In this document: piece by piece, positions 1,376 through 22,293 of the stretch | Numbering within the stretch: position 1 is the first letter of the stretch | Layout of the letters: the number at the start of each line of letters is the position of its first letter | Virus record (IMG/VR): IMGVR_UViG_3300009790_000079 | Coordinates: 1-22,843 of that record | Length of the DNA stretch: 22,843 nucleotides | DNA from: a virus | Strand: one strand, 5' to 3' | Notes under the pieces: model-generated | The model's input: only the letters and a program-made list of their open reading frames with translations | Databases searched by the model: none | What the model was told of the DNA's origin: nothing | Made by a program: the position numbers and the translations under genes

Positions 1376-1382
1376 TATTTAG
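1376..1382 (-). promoter_or_regulatory. Late promoter-like box (CTAAATA) fused to a stop codon
   Basis: The minus strand reads C-TAA-ATA. The TAA is the actual stop codon of the collagen-like fibre gene (1379-1381). The box is followed by a 21-nt gap and the ATG at 1354. The first base differs from T4 TATAAATA, but CTAAATA recurs at three other gene starts in this window. Confidence 0.5.
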
Positions 1383-2926
1383 AAAGGCATATTCCAATTT
1401 TTTGTTTGGAATAATCCAGCATCTGAGGTTTTAGCCTTGTTAGCCCATACTGTTCCATTATACTCTAGAGTATCACCTACTGCTGGATTGTCAAGAGTAA
1501 CTGTTAGTAATTGACCACCCATGTATGTTAAATTTCCATTACTAATACCTACTGAACGTACTACATCATCCGCACCCACAAACTTAATACTATTATCTGA
1601 TAAGAATAAATGTCTTACTTTATATTCAGCATTACCAAGATCATAGTCCTCATTTGATGCTGGAATTATATGTCCAGTACTAGTAACATTCCATCTTCTA
1701 GTTCCATTTGTTTCAAAAGAAATAGAACCAATACCAGAAGCATTGCTAGTATCATGAACTTCTACTCTAGTATCACCCTCTTCTATCATATCCGCTATTG
1801 GATAAGACGCTCCTCTACCAGAAATATCTACCCATTGAGAAGTATTAGCATCTTCATAGTAGACATTTAATCTAGCATTTTGAGAATCCCACCAAAGATC
1901 TCCATCATTAGGACTAGTTGGAGCAGTATCAGAAGTAGTTACATTAGCAGCACCACCACCTCCACCAGAAGAGCTAGTTACACCTCTACCACTAGCGTTT
2001 ACCCACTGAGAACTATCTGCATCCTCATAATAAACATTTAATTGACCATTAACAGAATCCCACCAAAGATCTCCATCATTAGGACTAGTTGGAGCAGTAT
2101 CAGAAGTAGTTACATTAGCACCACCTGATCCACCAGATCCAGGAGGACCAGGAGGACCAGCAGAACCTGGTGGTCCAGGAGTTCCAGCAGGACCTGGAGG
2201 ACCAGCAACAGTAGAAGCAGGACCAGGAGGTCCAGCAGCACCTGGAGTTCCAGGAGGACCAGCAACAGTAGAAGCAGGACCAGGAGGACCAGCAGCACCA
2301 GCAGATCCAGGAGGACCAGGAGGACCAGCAGCAGTAGAAGCAGGACCAGGAGGACCTGTCAATCCTTGTTGTCCAGCAGGACCAGGAGGACCAGCAGAAC
2401 CTGGTGGTCCAGCATTTGTATTACCACCACCAGAATTAGCAGTTACCCATTGTGAACTATCTCCATCATCATAATATATGAATAAATCACCAGAATCAGC
2501 TTCCCACCATAAATCACCACTAACAGCGTTTAATGGAGGAGTATCATCAACACTAACAGGAACAACTGTTATAGTTGCAGCAACACCAGGATGTCCAGAT
2601 GGATTTTGAACAGATACTTGAGCAGTAACCGCAGCACCAACAAAATTTAACTGGTTAATACTATTGGCAGCACCAACTAAAGACCCTTCATCATATACAC
2701 TAAGAGCACCTGGAATTAATCCACCACCAACAGGAACCCAATATCTTTTACCCTCATTACCAGGAACAGCAACTAATTGAAACTGAGATCCAGAAGGAAC
2801 AGGATCAGTAGTAGCAGGATCTCCTAATGTTGGTTCTGCTTGAGCAAGACTTAGATACTTATGTCTATTCGGATCTAACTGACTTGGAGGATCCTTTTTT
2901 ACTCTACCACTAACATACTTTGGCAT
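1379..2926 (-). CDS. Collagen-like tail fibre protein
   Basis: A 515-residue fibre. Residues 1-130 form a unique N-terminal domain, probably the virion attachment end. Residues 128-166 are a divergent DLWW module ([17 protein letters not shown]). Residues 173-269 are Gly-X-Y collagen-like sequence, mostly GPP and GPA triplets, with three interruptions of the form PAST(A/V)AG. Residues 271-315 and 328-372 are two near-identical [16 protein letters not shown] modules ending QW(V)xxSGRG. Residues 385-470 resemble head- or tail-fibre shaft segments ([19 protein letters not shown]). The C-terminus [12 protein letters not shown] matches the 212-residue fibre downstream. Collagen-like phage fibres form trimers. 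It starts 2 nt after the stop of the upstream gene, so it is probably translated from the same late transcript. Host binding is inferred only from architecture. Confidence 0.85.
1883..1949. repeat. 67-nt direct repeat, copy 1 (partner 2054-2120)
   Basis: These 67 nt are identical to 2054-2120 in the same gene. Both encode the start of the [16 protein letters not shown] module ([12 protein letters not shown] through DLWWDS). The remainder of the two modules has diverged at DNA level, which suggests a tandem module duplication followed by drift, or local gene conversion at the conserved half. Confidence 0.85.
2054..2120. repeat. 67-nt direct repeat, copy 2 (partner 1883-1949)
   Basis: Exact copy of 1883-1949, lying immediately next to the collagen-like segment. 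A more diverged relative of the same module is in the fibre gene at 292-930 (around 428-495 on the plus strand). Confidence 0.85.
2120..2410 (-). repeat. Collagen-like Gly-X-Y coding repeat
   Basis: About 32 glycine triplets, mostly GPP or GPA, encoded by GGTCCT/GGACCA-like units. On the plus strand this is a run of ccagga, ccagca and similar hexamers. The recurring block AGPPGPAST(A/V)AGPPG appears three times at about 39-60-nt spacing. The repeat can expand or contract by slippage or recombination and would change fibre length in steps of three residues. Confidence 0.85.
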
Positions 2927-13519: not shown

Positions 13520-14914
13520 TTATACAGGTGTTAGATTAAATTGCTGATATGCATGATAAACATATGTATTATCTGGATTAATAGCACCTATCATTGGAGT
13601 AGATTCTTGTGATGCAGTTCCAGGTAATACAGAACCTCCTGTAGAATTAGATGTTCCTTCATTACTTTGACCCCCATCTGAAGGTATAATAATTGGTTCT
13701 TCTTCAGGTAAAGATGCTAATTGCTCCGACACTTGAGGAGATCTTTTAACTGATGTAATATTCTCACTACTACCAGATTGTCTACCACTTAATGGAACAT
13801 TAGATAAAGAGTCTGATGAATCTCCTTCACTAGAACTCTCTTGTCGTATTAATTGAGTATAATTTTCCTTAAACTTTTCCGAAAGATTTTTTTCTGGATT
13901 CTCAACTTCCTTTGGTTTCCCCCTAAACATCCTAGTAAACCAATTACCCTTTTTATTATTAGTTTTAGGTTGAGATGCTAATTTTGAATCATTAGCTTTC
14001 GATGGTATAAGTTCAGTTTTTGGTTTAACTTGTTCGTTATCAGATGCTTTAGCATCTCCACCAAACAATCCACCAAATATTCTACCGAAAATAGAACGAT
14101 TTTCTTTTGGATCAGTACTTGTATCAGGCTTATTATCCATAAATTCATAGTTTTCAGTATTAAAAACTTGATCTTCTGGATCATTAACAACAGCATCCCA
14201 AATAGACAACCCACCAAGAGCCTGAAGAGAACGTTTAAAAACCTTTACAAAACCTGCTACAGGATTCCATATCCCAGATGTTTTACTCATCCTAGACATT
14301 CTCACAACAAAACTAGAGAGAATACCAGTCATCCCCTTCCAACCAAATTTTATTGCACCAATAGTAAAGGCAATTTGCCCTATAGTCCTTAGTACTTTAA
14401 AACCAATTTTCTTTTGAGCTTCTGTATTTTTATTAGCTACAGCATCATATGCCTCTAATGCTTGATCACTTAACCATCCAAAAAATAGTACATTAAAAGC
14501 ACCTCTAAGTTTACTTAAAGTACCCTGCACCTTTGATCCGATTTTATTTACTGGAGAAATTAAAGCATTTTGTATTTTTTTCTCAATAGTACTTTCTTTT
14601 CCTTCTCTTAATCGTAATGTTGCTAATCTTCTCTCTCTTTCAAATTCAGCATCAGTTCTTTGTCTCTCTAACTGAGATCTAACGTCTAAATTACTTTTTA
14701 CTACTGATAGAGAAAATCTTAATTGATTAAGTGATTGTGATACACCACTAAGTTGTTGAGAAACACTATTTAAGGATGCTGTATTCTGACTTAATAAATT
14801 TGTAGTTACTGGATCAGGTTGAGGTGGTGGTATAGCACGGCCACTAAACAAGCTAGATGATACAGTATTTCTTACTGCTTGTATTCCTCCTTGTATTGGT
14901 GAATTAATTGCCAT
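13520..14914 (-). CDS. Tape-measure-like coiled-coil tail/hub protein
   Basis: A 464-residue protein. Residues 37-110 are a long coiled coil ending in a charged run (FERERRLATLRLREGKES). Residues 136-155 (LRGAFNVLFFGWLSDQALEA) and 174-206 are hydrophobic helices, as in tape-measure proteins that enter membranes. Residues 240-450 are polar, S/N/P-rich and probably unstructured, with an EPIIIPSDGG segment. The C-terminus YVYHAYQQFNLTPV is a compact conserved-looking tail. The ATG lies inside the 3' end of the 58-residue ORF (11-nt overlap). Its place directly after the tail assembly chaperone-like pair is where tape-measure genes usually sit. It may be the tape measure itself, with the 557-residue protein as partner, or both may be gp28/gp29-type hub components. 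Confidence 0.6.
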   Translation of the reverse strand: MAINSPIQGGIQAVRNTVSSSLFSGRAIPPPQPDPVTTNLLSQNTASLNSVSQQLSGVSQSLNQLRFSLSVVKSNLDVRSQLERQRTDAEFERERRLATLRLREGKESTIEKKIQNALISPVNKIGSKVQGTLSKLRGAFNVLFFGWLSDQALEAYDAVANKNTEAQKKIGFKVLRTIGQIAFTIGAIKFGWKGMTGILSSFVVRMSRMSKTSGIWNPVAGFVKVFKRSLQALGGLSIWDAVVNDPEDQVFNTENYEFMDNKPDTSTDPKENRSIFGRIFGGLFGGDAKASDNEQVKPKTELIPSKANDSKLASQPKTNNKKGNWFTRMFRGKPKEVENPEKNLSEKFKENYTQLIRQESSSEGDSSDSLSNVPLSGRQSGSSENITSVKRSPQVSEQLASLPEEEPIIIPSDGGQSNEGTSNSTGGSVLPGTASQESTPMIGAINPDNTYVYHAYQQFNLTPV

Positions 14915-15080
14915 TTTGCTGTGCCTTTAAATTTTCCTCTTCAATATACTGTTGTAGAAGAGCAAGATATATCTCTCTTTCCCAAGGAATCATATTTTCT
15001 AACTCCGTTAAGCTATATTTATGATGCTGCATCAGAGCAAAGTTAATTTTATAGTATGACGCAAGATCCTCATGTGCCAT
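14904..15080 (-). CDS. 58-residue ORF, candidate -1 frameshift extension of the gp26-like chaperone
   Basis: The frame encodes MAHEDLASYYKINFALMQHH, then KYSLTELENMIPWEREIYLA and LLQQYIEEENLKAQQNGN. The last part is clearly helical and acidic, and the sequence looks coding: in a tightly packed operon it fills the only gap between the gp26-like gene and the tape-measure-like gene. Its ATG is 2 nt after the gp26-like stop and has no recognisable ribosome site (GGGTAAGT precedes it). Its frame is -1 relative to the gp26-like gene, and an ideal slippery site lies just upstream. It may therefore be translated mainly as a 299-residue fusion, in the manner of lambda gpGT, or separately by stop-start coupling. 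It ends 11 nt inside the tape-measure-like gene. Confidence 0.75.
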   Translation of the reverse strand: MAHEDLASYYKINFALMQHHKYSLTELENMIPWEREIYLALLQQYIEEENLKAQQNGN

Positions 15081-15095
15081 ACTTACCCGAAAAAA
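15054..15095 (-). promoter_or_regulatory. Candidate programmed -1 ribosomal frameshift site
   Basis: On the minus strand, positions 15095-15089 read TTTTTTC. In the gp26-like frame this is AGT TTT TTC, so the register is exactly T_TTT_TTC. A 6-nt spacer follows (GGGTAA, containing the zero-frame stop). Then GTATGGC (15082-15076) can pair with GTCATAC (15060-15054), a 7-bp stem with one G-U pair and a 15-nt loop. After slippage the ribosome would read CGG GTA AGT ATG GCA and enter the 58-residue ORF. Confidence 0.6.
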
Positions 15096-15802
15096 CTTTG
15101 TAATCCCTCCAATAGTACTTCATTTTCAACGTTTGTATTTGGATTAGTAACCTTTACTATATGTGATAACTTGGGCATAGTATCAAAAAAACTTTCAACC
15201 TCCTTAAATTGTTTAGTATTCAACTGTTCAATAAATTGAGTTAATTCTTTCTTAGTGCAATCAGAAGCTGCCCATGACTCCTCTTCAGAAAATACCTGCT
15301 CAATACAAGAAGATATCAATTCAAAAGTATCATCAACACTTATATCTTCATTAGAATTAAAATTAGTCTTAATAAATTCATTTAGAGATGGATATCTCAT
15401 TCTTAAAATATATTCATCATCTAATTTAATATCTCTAGAATGTTTATCATTTTTCTGAATTTGTATATCATCTAGATTGATAGTTGCTGGAACTTGAGTA
15501 GTACCATCGTCTGGACAAGTTACCATAACTTCAACTTCCTCACCCACAGATTTACCTCTAATGTTGAGAAAAATATATTCAATATCAAAAGTAGAAAGAC
15601 TTTCTACTTTCACCCCTCTAGTTAAAATACAAGATTTTATAACATCTTTAACAGCATTTGCTATCTGTTTACTATCTTGACTCTCCATAGCAAGAATCAA
15701 TACTTTTTCTTCCTTAACTAAAAATGGTCTAAATTTTATTTTCTTTTCAGTCGAAGGGATCACCAATTCATAAGAAGGTGTCGCAATTTTCGGTAAAGGC
15801 AT
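15083..15802 (-). CDS. 26: Baseplate hub assembly chaperone, gp26-like
   Basis: A 239-residue protein related to T4 gp26 (208 residues), a baseplate hub assembly factor. Visible family features are an N-terminal MPLPKIATPSYELVIPST with KKIKFRPFLVKEEKVLI, a helix carrying LSTFDIEYIFLNIRGKSVG, a short beta insert with TCPDDGTTQ, and a helical C-terminal half with SLNEFIK and an acidic patch. Proteins of this group lie upstream of the tape measure, as do the G-type tail assembly chaperones of other tailed phages. The final codons before the stop are AGT TTT TTC GGG, containing a canonical -1 slippery heptamer. A TATAAATA late promoter lies just upstream. The gp26 name is from recognition of the conserved segments, not from alignment. 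Confidence 0.75.
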   Translation of the reverse strand: MPLPKIATPSYELVIPSTEKKIKFRPFLVKEEKVLILAMESQDSKQIANAVKDVIKSCILTRGVKVESLSTFDIEYIFLNIRGKSVGEEVEVMVTCPDDGTTQVPATINLDDIQIQKNDKHSRDIKLDDEYILRMRYPSLNEFIKTNFNSNEDISVDDTFELISSCIEQVFSEEESWAASDCTKKELTQFIEQLNTKQFKEVESFFDTMPKLSHIVKVTNPNTNVENEVLLEGLQSFFG

Positions 15803-15835: not shown

Positions 15836-16681
15836 CTATACGGAGAAATATTTGTATGGATTAGATACATCCATACTACCATCATAAAGATTGACAAAAT
15901 CAGCTTTTCCAGTTGGAGAATTTAAAAGTGCCACCTGTCCAGAGACAGTAGAACCGTTATTTTGAAATTGTCCTTTACTCAAACTATCAGGAACATTCGT
16001 TGATTTTTTCCATACATATCCATTTGGTTCTTTATTTTCATCAGTGCCGTTATTAATAGATATTGATGATGATTCACCACAGATATACCTATCATAACTA
16101 AAATTACAGGTTGCTTTTAATACCTGAGAACGTTGATATGAAACTCTAGTAGAACTTAAAGATAATGGAAATAATCCAATAAATTTATACTCAATAAACT
16201 GCCTATAATTTTTTTCAAATTTAACTATTTTAGTTTCGTTTGATTTATAAAGTTCTGGATATCTCATCTTAAAATGATAAGAACTTGTAGCAGCAGAATT
16301 TGGATTAGCACCACCAATATATTCCATCCAATGCTCTAAAAATTTTAGAGTTTTATATTTATTATCAACATAAAATTCTAATGATATTTGAGTAAAATTT
16401 CTAGTGTGAGCAAATCTTTCAACAACACCTTGATAATTACCAACAACATCAACAGAAGCAAGAGCACTTCCTGGTAATGAAGCACTACTACAAAGCATTC
16501 CTATTTGATCACCAACAAATCTAAAATCAACCCCCTTCCTTCTAAGATGATGCCCTAATGAATATCCATCATTATTAGTATGTGGAGGCAGACTAAATTT
16601 TACCAAATAATTAGAAGTTTGTGCAACATTCTGAAATGTAGGTAATATCTGCGATATTTTCTTTGGAATTGGTGCTGGCAC
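15836..16681 (-). CDS. Tail-tube-fold protein, candidate gp54-type tube initiator
   Basis: A 281-residue protein, starting at GTG. After a short N-terminal arm it reads TSNYLVKFSLPPH, then MLCSSASLPGSALASVDVVG, then HTRNFTQISLEFYVDNKY with LKFLEHWMEYIGG, and near residues 160-220 VKFEKNYRQFIEYKFIGLFP, ending in CNFSYDRY. This order (a short LPG strand, an (S/T)ISLEFYVD strand, an F-x-x-W helix, then a K-F-x-GLFP strand and a beta strand with FSYDRY) matches the tube fold of T4 gp19. T4 gp54, which starts tube growth above gp48, has the same fold and a similar length (320). It is the first gene of the leftward tail operon and faces gp4. The start codon is chosen because no in-frame ATG lies between it and the late promoter. 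It could also be another tube-related baseplate protein. Confidence 0.65.
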   Translation of the reverse strand: MPAPIPKKISQILPTFQNVAQTSNYLVKFSLPPHTNNDGYSLGHHLRRKGVDFRFVGDQIGMLCSSASLPGSALASVDVVGNYQGVVERFAHTRNFTQISLEFYVDNKYKTLKFLEHWMEYIGGANPNSAATSSYHFKMRYPELYKSNETKIVKFEKNYRQFIEYKFIGLFPLSLSSTRVSYQRSQVLKATCNFSYDRYICGESSSISINNGTDENKEPNGYVWKKSTNVPDSLSKGQFQNNGSTVSGQVALLNSPTGKADFVNLYDGSMDVSNPYKYFSV

Positions 16682-20730: not shown

Positions 20731-22293
20731 TTAGTATCCTGTAGGTGGATTTGCTCCCCAACTTATATAAACCAGTCCATCACCACCAGCACCCATAGCA
20801 TTATTTGATTCATTGTGGCCAGCTCCACCGCCACCGCCACCGAAGGCTCCACCGCCTCCACCACCAGCGTTTTGTCCTTGTCCTACTCCTTTATGTCCAC
20901 CACCAGCATTGTCGGCATATCCACCACCATGTCCACCATCAAGAGGATAGGCATCAGGATATCCTTGTCCAGTACCACCACCATAAGCTCCACCAGGACC
21001 ACCGTATACACCAGCGTTAGTACCATCAGTACCTCCACCACCTCCACCAAATGCTCTTGTATATCCTAACTGCTCAAATTCATATATTACGTTAGGTCCA
21101 CCTTGACCACCATCGCCACCTTGACCATTATCTGATCCACCGCCACCGCCACCGCCAGCGAAGTAGCTTCCTGCACCACCATTAATAGCGGGACCATTAT
21201 CAGCACCACCGCCTCCACCACCAGCACCACCATTAGTACCAGCAGCATTTGGATTTGTTGCATATCCATACTGAGATACTGGATCATTAGCATAAGGAGA
21301 TCCTGCACCACCTGTTCCGTTTACATCACCATTAGATCCTGTACCGCCACCGCCACCATTATTACCAGTATTTCCACCATTACCCCAACCCATACCACCA
21401 GATCCAACTATTGTTATACCTCCAGGTCCATTAAAGTCAGATTGTGATCCATTATTTCCATTAGAACTATTAAGTCTTGCTCCACCAGCACCAACATTCA
21501 ATGAATATGTTCCACCAGATACTAAATTATTCCAATATTTCATAGCAGCACCACCACCAGCACCACCACCTGAACCGCCACCGCCACCGCCACCGCCAAT
21601 GACGATTACCCTTGCTTTTGTTACTCCAGCAGGTACAGTCCAACTATAGGATCCAGGAGTATAGAAAGCAGTATGTGAGTAGTCTGCTAAACTACTATCA
21701 GTAATAGTTACTGTTGAGGATGTACCAAGTAACTGACTCAATCCAGCATCAGCATAAAGTTTAAACTGAAATGTCTCATTACCTTCTGTTGAAACATCTT
21801 GTGCAGTTGTGAGAGAAACTTGAGCAGCACCACCAGAAGTAGTAACTGTTCCAGTAGTTGTAGCACCCGTAAAATCAGCACCAGTTATACCAGTACCATC
21901 CGCTTTCCAATAAAAAGTTCCATCTGGAACATCTATTGTACTTATATTAAATGTTACAGTACTATTTTCATCAAGACTAAAAGTAGAAGGAGTTATATTA
22001 TATGCTGGTTCTGGATGTGCAGGTATTCTTTCAACAACAGTGTCTACTAAATTCTGTGAAGTATATGTTATTAACCACCCTTTCTTATTTCCACCAAAAT
22101 CTTCATTATACCCAGTAACCAATCCAACATTATTATAAAACATCTGCGTATACTTAACATCATCTAAAGTAACTTCAGTTACATGGTTACTAGAATCCGT
22201 AGAAATACCTGATGATCTAGTAAATGGTTTTACAGGACCTAATCCACCACCACCTTTACCTTTGTTAGTCCACAACCCAATGTATCTTCCCAT
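20731..22293 (-). CDS. Adhesin-like tail protein with Calx-beta-like domain and poly-glycine tip
   Basis: A 520-residue protein. Residues 1-95 match the N-terminal module of the gene downstream (MGRYIGLWTNKGKGGGGLGP; VGLVTGYNEDFGG). Residues 100-200 form the Calx-beta-like sandwich (FSLDENSTVTFNISTIDVP; then STEGNETFQFKLYADAG and STVTITDS). Residues 206-240 (FYTPGSYSWTVPAGVTKARV, IVIGGGGGGGG) open a glycine-rich domain that continues to about residue 510, with many GGGG blocks broken by short polar loops, and ends YISWGANPPTGY. Glycine-rich tips of this kind occur on T4-like adhesins such as the gp38 group, where they form polyglycine II helices and contact the receptor. A late box lies 26 nt upstream. 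The paralogue pair shares a base but not a tip. Confidence 0.8.
   Translation of the reverse strand: MGRYIGLWTNKGKGGGGLGPVKPFTRSSGISTDSSNHVTEVTLDDVKYTQMFYNNVGLVTGYNEDFGGNKKGWLITYTSQNLVDTVVERIPAHPEPAYNITPSTFSLDENSTVTFNISTIDVPDGTFYWKADGTGITGADFTGATTTGTVTTSGGAAQVSLTTAQDVSTEGNETFQFKLYADAGLSQLLGTSSTVTITDSSLADYSHTAFYTPGSYSWTVPAGVTKARVIVIGGGGGGGGSGGGAGGGAAMKYWNNLVSGGTYSLNVGAGGARLNSSNGNNGSQSDFNGPGGITIVGSGGMGWGNGGNTGNNGGGGGTGSNGDVNGTGGAGSPYANDPVSQYGYATNPNAAGTNGGAGGGGGGADNGPAINGGAGSYFAGGGGGGGSDNGQGGDGGQGGPNVIYEFEQLGYTRAFGGGGGGTDGTNAGVYGGPGGAYGGGTGQGYPDAYPLDGGHGGGYADNAGGGHKGVGQGQNAGGGGGGAFGGGGGGAGHNESNNAMGAGGDGLVYISWGANPPTGY

What the first reader, a model, noticed from the sequence alone, without database searches (positions are those of the whole stretch)
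15054..15095. Candidate -1 programmed frameshift in a T4-like tail operon (gp26-like to 58-residue ORF)
The gp26-like gene ends AGT TTT TTC GGG TAA. This contains T_TTT_TTC in the correct register, with a 6-nt spacer and a 7-bp stem-loop after it. The -1 frame enters a 58-residue ORF that lacks a ribosome site, fills the gap exactly and runs 11 nt into the tape-measure-like gene. The predicted fusion is 238 + 3 + 58 = 299 residues. This is the G/GT (or E/E') tail assembly chaperone layout known from lambda and P2. I do not recall it being described for the gp26 group of T4-like phages. The register, spacing and ORF phase are read from sequence; the function is inference.
Basis: partly seen in the sequence, partly recalled or inferred. 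Interest (0 to 1): 0.8.

Follow-up and report, generated by a model that had tools for sequence, protein, structure and literature searches.

The report
Frameshifted tail-assembly chaperone in marine phage
A T4-like marine phage very probably makes a short and a long version of one tail-building helper protein by having some ribosomes slip back one base at a conserved TTTTTTC, as phage lambda does; the evidence is strong, but the same trick had apparently already been reported for T4-like phages.

Summary
TTTTTTC sits in the correct register at the end of the gp26-like gene, 6 nt before a stem-loop. The 58-residue ORF lies in the -1 frame, lacks a ribosome site and overlaps the next gene by 11 nt. 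Among 178 gp26 homologues (dereplicated at 90%), 177 keep a T_TTT_TTN site in that register, even where the second Phe has become Leu. All keep the downstream domain in the -1 frame, and about a third have no usable start codon for it. A Shine-Dalgarno-like GGAGGG 9 nt upstream and a covarying stem-loop complete the cassette. T4 and two relatives carry two gp26-type genes instead; T4 gp51 is the in-frame equivalent of the predicted fusion. This explains why marine 'gp51' looks 200 residues too short.

Best reading: a -1 programmed frameshift making the short and long tail assembly chaperones (TAC-N, TAC-NC) of a T4-like phage. It is a well-supported new member of a known kind. Vladimirov et al. 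2022 identified the T4-like TAC genes, and a later paper cites them for poly-T frameshift signals there; I could not read that paper. Translation itself is inferred, not shown. Ackermannviridae keep the -1 domain without the heptamer, which is unexplained.

The parts
15836..16681 (-). tail tube protein gene, immediately upstream (position of lambda V / P2 FII)
   Evidence: PF23849 E 9.8e-15 and phrog_45 tail tube E 1.2e-39
15083..15802 (-). gp26-like gene: 0-frame product, short tail assembly chaperone (TAC-N, lambda gpG counterpart)
   Evidence: PF12322 E 1.7e-74, phrog_150 E 4.6e-80; AlphaFold2 mean pLDDT 88.8
15105..15110 (-). GGAGGG, Shine-Dalgarno-like probable frameshift stimulator, 9 nt upstream of the heptamer
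   Evidence: at this site Glu is GAG 69% against 32% elsewhere in the gene, Gly is GGG 27% against 6%
15089..15095 (-). slippery heptamer T_TTT_TTC
   Evidence: in register in 177/178 dereplicated homologues
15083..15085 (-). 0-frame stop codon TAA, in the spacer
   Evidence: sequence
15053..15083 (-). downstream stem-loop, arms 15083..15074 and 15062..15053 (window has one mismatch in the arms)
   Evidence: 45 relatives: 96.4% of cells paired, covariation above all 500 shuffles and every slid control; 8 and 6 parsimony changes at the two sides of the key pair
14904..15089 (-). -1 frame C-terminal domain (RVS + 58 aa + stop; 'gp51', lambda T counterpart) that completes the 299-aa TAC-NC
   Evidence: phrog_634 E 1.6e-27; aligns with the C terminus of T4 gp51, hhalign E 7e-10
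13520..14914 (-). next gene, position of the tape measure gene; identity not confirmed by any profile
   Evidence: no Pfam or PHROG match

Best explanation
This is the tail assembly chaperone cassette of a T4-like (Kyanoviridae-like) marine phage. Most ribosomes translate the gp26-like gene to its TAA and make the 239-aa TAC-N. Some, paused by an SD-like GGAGGG behind and a stem-loop 6 nt ahead, slip both tRNAs on T_TTT_TTC back by one base, read CGG GTA AGT through the stop region, and continue into the 58-aa domain, giving a 299-aa TAC-NC. By analogy with lambda gpG/gpGT, many TAC-N and few TAC-NC would coat the tape measure protein, and the extra domain would recruit tail tube subunits. Shown here: conservation of site, register, phase, stem-loop and SD-like element; absence of alternative starts in many relatives; and a natural in-frame version of the fusion in T4-type phages. 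Inferred: that slippage occurs in vivo, its efficiency, and the chaperone function.
For: (1) TTTTTT in the T_TTT_TTN register in 177 of 178 gp26 homologues dereplicated at 90%. The preceding codon (S, N, D, A, T, H) always ends in T and the P-site codon is always TTT; the A-site codon is TTC, TTT, TTA or TTG, so the nucleotides are kept while the residue changes. (2) The -1 frame is open for 53-72 codons in every locus where its end is held; the +1 frame usually stops within a few codons. (3) In 45 of 177 the -1 frame has no ATG/GTG/TTG in its first 16 codons and in 12 more the first is at codon 9-15, although conserved residues such as H, L and Y lie before it. No SD before the ATG in 80 of 80 that have it. 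(4) SD-like and stem-loop elements conserved with covariation. (5) T4, PM2 and ZHF carry two PF12322 genes and their gp51 is gp26 domain plus this C-terminal domain in one frame; the other 13 named genomes searched carry one. (6) Gene order tail tube - gp26 - domain - long ORF. (7) The PDB match with highest probability for the gp26 model is the HK97 tail assembly chaperone 2OB9, weak (prob 0.82, E 0.8, 62 columns).
Against: No protein or ribosome-profiling data. Ackermannviridae and a Vibrio phage lineage keep the -1 domain but lack the heptamer, so the heptamer is not universal in the wider group. The stem-loop in this exact register belongs to the window's clade; other lineages have different or weaker structures. 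The window itself has one mismatch in the stem. The TAC fold match is weak. P-values for codon choice ignore shared ancestry.
Confidence: 0.9

Rival explanations
1. The small ORF is an independent gene, translated by reinitiation after the gp26 stop (TAAGTATG) or by weak initiation at its own ATG, giving a separate 58-aa gp51.
For: In the window and many close relatives an ATG lies 2 nt after the stop, and public records annotate a separate 'baseplate hub assembly catalyst'.
Against: No SD in 80 of 80. The ATG is replaced by Leu codons in many relatives while residues before and after it stay conserved. It does not explain the conserved heptamer, its register or the strict -1 phase. In T4-type phages the domain is fused to a gp26-type domain.
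Confidence: 0.05
2. Transcriptional slippage: RNA polymerase stutters on the T run and makes mixed mRNAs, some of which fuse the frames.
For: The site is a T run of 6 (159), 7 (7) or 8 (11) in 177 representatives.
Against: Runs of exactly 6 T are short for slippage (general knowledge). The codon register is invariant although slippage needs only length. A stem 6 nt downstream and an SD-like element 9 nt upstream fit ribosomal pausing.
Confidence: 0.04
3. The heptamer is kept only because the protein needs Ser-Phe-Phe at its end.
For: Phe at this place is invariant or nearly so in the protein alignments.
Against: The second residue changes to Leu while TTTTTT stays; the wobble base of the preceding codon is always T although only 31-78% T elsewhere for the same residues (log10 p about -40 uncorrected, -5.9 on 36 representatives at 50% identity).
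Confidence: 0.01

Closest known systems
T4-like phage tail assembly chaperones gp26/gp51 (Vladimirov, Gautam and Davidson, Virology 2022, doi 10.1016/j.virol.2021.11.003; not held, known through papers that cite it)
   Same: Same protein family as far as can be told (PF12322 plus phrog_634 domain). Later papers cite it for poly-T -1 signals in T4-like TAC-N genes and for T4-like phages with a short gene plus a separate fused long gene.
   Different: T4 makes the two forms from two divergently placed genes; the window makes them from one gene with a frameshift. I could not check which lineages or stimulators that paper covers.
Phage lambda gpG/gpGT
   Same: Order tail tube - short chaperone - -1 extension - tape measure position; [quoted passage not shown] minor long product.
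   Different: Different slippery sequence (from memory GGGAAAG in lambda), no sequence similarity seen, contractile-tail phage, and an SD-like plus stem-loop cassette.
Phage P2 E/E'
   Same: Contractile-tail phage with a -1 frameshift between the tail tube and tape measure genes; T-rich slippery site (from memory).
   Different: Not compared by sequence here; P2 is an unrelated lineage.
Vandenendeviridae/Andersonviridae TAC locus (phage Adele, PMC12846349)
   Same: Conserved poly-T -1 frameshift at the end of TAC-N (GTTTTT), open -1 frame without stops, extension annotated as a hypothetical protein.
   Different: Different family and slippery context; no stem-loop covariation is described in the passages I read.

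Membership tests
-1 programmed ribosomal frameshift site (tandem slippage) | X_XXY_YYZ heptamer in the 0-frame register | tested here: met
   T_TTT_TTC at 15095..15089; 177/178 representatives
-1 programmed ribosomal frameshift site (tandem slippage) | Downstream structure at 5-9 nt and/or upstream SD-like stimulator | tested here: met
   Stem-loop 6 nt downstream with covariation; GGAGGG 9 nt upstream
-1 programmed ribosomal frameshift site (tandem slippage) | Trans-frame product made in vivo | not testable with these tools
   needs mass spectrometry or a reporter
Tail assembly chaperone pair (G/GT type) | Located between the major tail tube gene and the tape measure gene | tested here: inconclusive
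   Tail tube gene directly upstream confirmed; downstream gene has no profile match
Tail assembly chaperone pair (G/GT type) | Short and C-terminally extended product share one N-terminus by frameshift | tested here: met
   By sequence only: phase conserved in all loci; natural in-frame long form in T4-type phages
Tail assembly chaperone pair (G/GT type) | TAC fold | tested here: inconclusive
   2OB9 (HK97 TAC) is the PDB hit of highest probability (0.82) but E 0.8 over 62 columns
Tail assembly chaperone pair (G/GT type) | Absent from the virion, required for tail assembly | not tested
   Known for T4 gp51 (required, not in the particle; PMC3004832)
T4 gp26/gp51 family (PF12322, phrog_150, phrog_634) | Profile matches | tested here: met
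   PF12322 2-218/219, E 1.7e-74; phrog_634 60-115/121, E 1.6e-27
T4 two-gene arrangement (separate gp26 and fused gp51) | Two separate PF12322 genes | tested here: not met
   Window record holds one (the record is a 22.8-kb fragment); 13 named relatives hold one each, T4, PM2 and ZHF two

The most novel reading that the evidence does not exclude
One-gene frameshifting is the usual and possibly ancestral way in the whole T4 supergroup. T4 and close relatives would be the exception, having duplicated the gene and fused the frames. A third state exists in Ackermannviridae, where the heptamer is missing but the start-less -1 domain is still read by an undescribed, perhaps single-tRNA (T_TTC), slip.
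Probability: 0.5. Interest if true: 0.55.

Novelty: new member of a known kind. Interest (0 to 1): 0.42.

Why it matters
It explains an old puzzle: marine T4-like 'gp51' was reported to lack the first ~200 residues of T4 gp51 (PMC3037559). Those residues are supplied by gp26 through the frameshift. Hundreds of public phage records (585 with the domain) annotate the two halves as a baseplate hub protein plus a separate assembly catalyst, or leave the second half out. A 2016 review states the G-T frameshift is conserved in long-tailed phages 'except T4'; most of the wider T4 group follows the rule. The cassette gives direct tests of how long and short chaperone ratios are set.

Tried and rejected
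Independent gp51 gene: rejected on missing starts and SD. Pure protein constraint on Phe-Phe: rejected on codon evidence. Transcriptional slippage: unlikely. A single stem-loop register for all lineages: fails outside the window's clade (59% of cells paired over 181 sequences); RNAalifold on broad groups gave no consensus. Sequence search of PDB with the gp26 profile: nothing. Confirming the downstream gene as tape measure: no match. Direction of the T4 duplication: the tree puts the six T4-type sequences apart from the rest (93/67 support), but without an outgroup the direction stays open. Viral-contig scan with the Vibrio K369 protein found no relatives. L075 lacks the pattern only because of an internal stop in gp26; its site is intact. 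One script timed out on an endless loop. The key paper (Vladimirov 2022) was not held.

Full report
What is there. On the minus strand the window carries a tail tube gene (16681..15836), a gp26-like gene (15802..15083), a 58-aa ORF (15080..14904) and a 464-aa ORF (14914..13520). The gp26-like gene ends CAA AGT TTT TTC GGG TAA. TTTTTTC (15095..15089) is in the T_TTT_TTC register. A -1 slip gives ...SFF-RVS-MAHEDLASYY..., 299 residues in all.

Family. The gp26-like protein matches PF12322 (E 1.7e-74) and phrog_150. The 58-aa ORF matches phrog_634, 'baseplate hub assembly catalyst' (E 1.6e-27), and also the far C-terminus of phrog_150 (positions 239-278 of 282), so some members of phrog_150 contain both parts in one protein.

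Comparison. I collected 337 gp26 homologues from IMG/VR and named phages, covering Kyanoviridae, Methylophilales phages, phiM7, DLP6, Cr30, KVP40, phiAS5, S13, Milchi, ACP17 and LG08. TTTTTT is in register near the end of gp26 in all but one of them (L092, Vibrio phage K369). After dereplication at 90% identity the count is 177 of 178. The codon before the P site is AGT, TCT, AAT, GAT, GCT, ACT or CAT, always ending in T; the P codon is always TTT; the A codon is TTC 147, TTT 18, TTA 11, TTG 1. TTA and TTG code for Leu, so the nucleotides are conserved where the protein is not. For the same residues elsewhere in these genes T is used 31-78% of the time. On 36 representatives at 50% identity the log10 probabilities are about -5.9 (wobble T) and -6.1 (TTT); shared ancestry means even these overstate independence.

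The -1 frame downstream is open for 53-72 codons in every locus where its end is held, and I met no case of the domain in another frame relative to a gp26-type short gene. The domain reads roughly R-[IV]-[AS]-[ML]-x-H-x-x-L-x-x-Y-Y-x-x-N-F...SLTE[LI]ENMIPWER. The window's ATG is one residue of this run. Other lineages have Leu there (RIALSH, RIALLH), and 45 of 177 have no start codon until inside the conserved core. None of the 80 representatives with that ATG has an SD sequence in range.

Stimulators. Six nt after the heptamer the mRNA folds into a stem-loop (-11.5 kcal/mol, z -2.9 in the window; -15.5 and -18.7 in two relatives). In 45 relatives chosen by gp26 similarity, 96.4% of cells of the 10-bp stem pair, against 19-48% for slid versions. 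The covariation score exceeds all 500 shuffles. Pair 21-35 switches among U-A, A-U and G-C: the third base of an Ala codon follows the second base of codon 10. Parsimony needs 8 and 6 changes at its two sides on a gp26 tree. More distant lineages have other stems at the same place (L330, GTAGCCCTC/GAGGGTTAC) or weaker ones. Nine nt upstream of the heptamer lies GGAGGG. Glu there is GAG in 69% (32% elsewhere), Gly is GGG in 27% (6% elsewhere). Both elements lie at distances known to stimulate -1 slippage in bacteria (general knowledge, dnaX type).

T4 itself. T4 gp26 (208 aa) and gp51 (249 aa) are homologous (BLASTP E 2e-6; both match PF12322 over its full length). gp51 has about 48 extra C-terminal residues that align with the window's -1 domain (hhalign E 7e-10). 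T4, Proteus PM2 and Aeromonas ZHF carry two PF12322 genes; the 13 other named genomes searched, KVP40 and phiM7 included, carry one. T4 therefore has in two genes what these phages encode in one by frameshifting. Sullivan et al. 2010 recorded that marine gp51 lacks the first ~200 residues; this is the explanation. An unrooted tree separates the six T4-type sequences from the rest (93/67) but cannot give the direction.

Function. T4 gp51 is required for assembly but absent from the particle, and gp26 and gp51 are listed as hub assembly chaperones (PMC3004832). The gp26 model (pLDDT 88.8) has as its most probable PDB match the HK97 tail assembly chaperone 2OB9, a weak hit. With the tail tube gene upstream, the tail assembly chaperone reading is the best one. 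The downstream gene is not confirmed as the tape measure protein.

Prior knowledge. A 2016 review says the G-T frameshift is conserved in long-tailed phages except T4. Vladimirov, Gautam and Davidson (Virology 2022) identified the T4-like TAC genes; the paper is not held. The Adele paper cites it for poly-T -1 signals in TAC-N genes of T4-like phages, and the PRFect paper for T4-like phages with separate short and fused long genes. So the kind is known. I found no held paper describing the covarying stem-loop, the SD-like element or the scale of conservation, but cannot exclude that the 2022 paper does.

Exception. Ackermannviridae (Mutine, Magnus, IME250) and Vibrio K369/K440 keep the domain in the -1 frame with no canonical heptamer (ATT TTC ATT TAA or CTT TTC AAG TAA). 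In the Ackermannviridae it is unannotated and there is no start codon before the conserved FEIDLLSYF; in the Vibrio phages an ATG overlaps the stop (TAATG). A T_TTC tetramer remains in register, which could support single-tRNA slippage. This is unexplained and untested.

Verdict. Real, strongly supported by comparison, mechanistically ordinary for tail assembly chaperones, new as an instance and useful for annotation; moderate interest.

Noticed in passing
L342:1780-1990, L343:1777-1985, L344:1777-1985 (Ackermannviridae); L092:2181-2395 and L345:1705-1920 (Vibrio phages K369, K440): The TAC C-terminal domain persists in the -1 frame after gp26 without the T6 heptamer; in the Ackermannviridae it is unannotated and has no start codon before its conserved core. 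A T_TTC tetramer in register is all that remains; a noncanonical slip is possible.
   Followed up: partly
L098:4803-6229 (T4), L099:768-2171 (PM2), L101:738-2141 (ZHF): gp26 and gp51 are divergent neighbouring genes of one family; gp51 equals gp26 domain plus the -1 domain of the frameshifting phages in a single frame.
   Followed up: yes
L103:1486-1686 (ACG-2014d) and other public records: Many cyanophage records annotate no feature over the -1 domain, or start it at an internal codon.
   Followed up: partly
L075:1501-2211: gp26 of this contig has an internal in-frame stop, probably an assembly or sequencing error; its frameshift site is intact.
   Followed up: partly
window 1379-2926: Structural protein with collagen-like GPP/GPA repeats and repeated [18 protein letters not shown] modules.
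   Followed up: no
window 20731-22293: Very glycine-rich 520-aa protein with long GGGGG runs.
   Followed up: no
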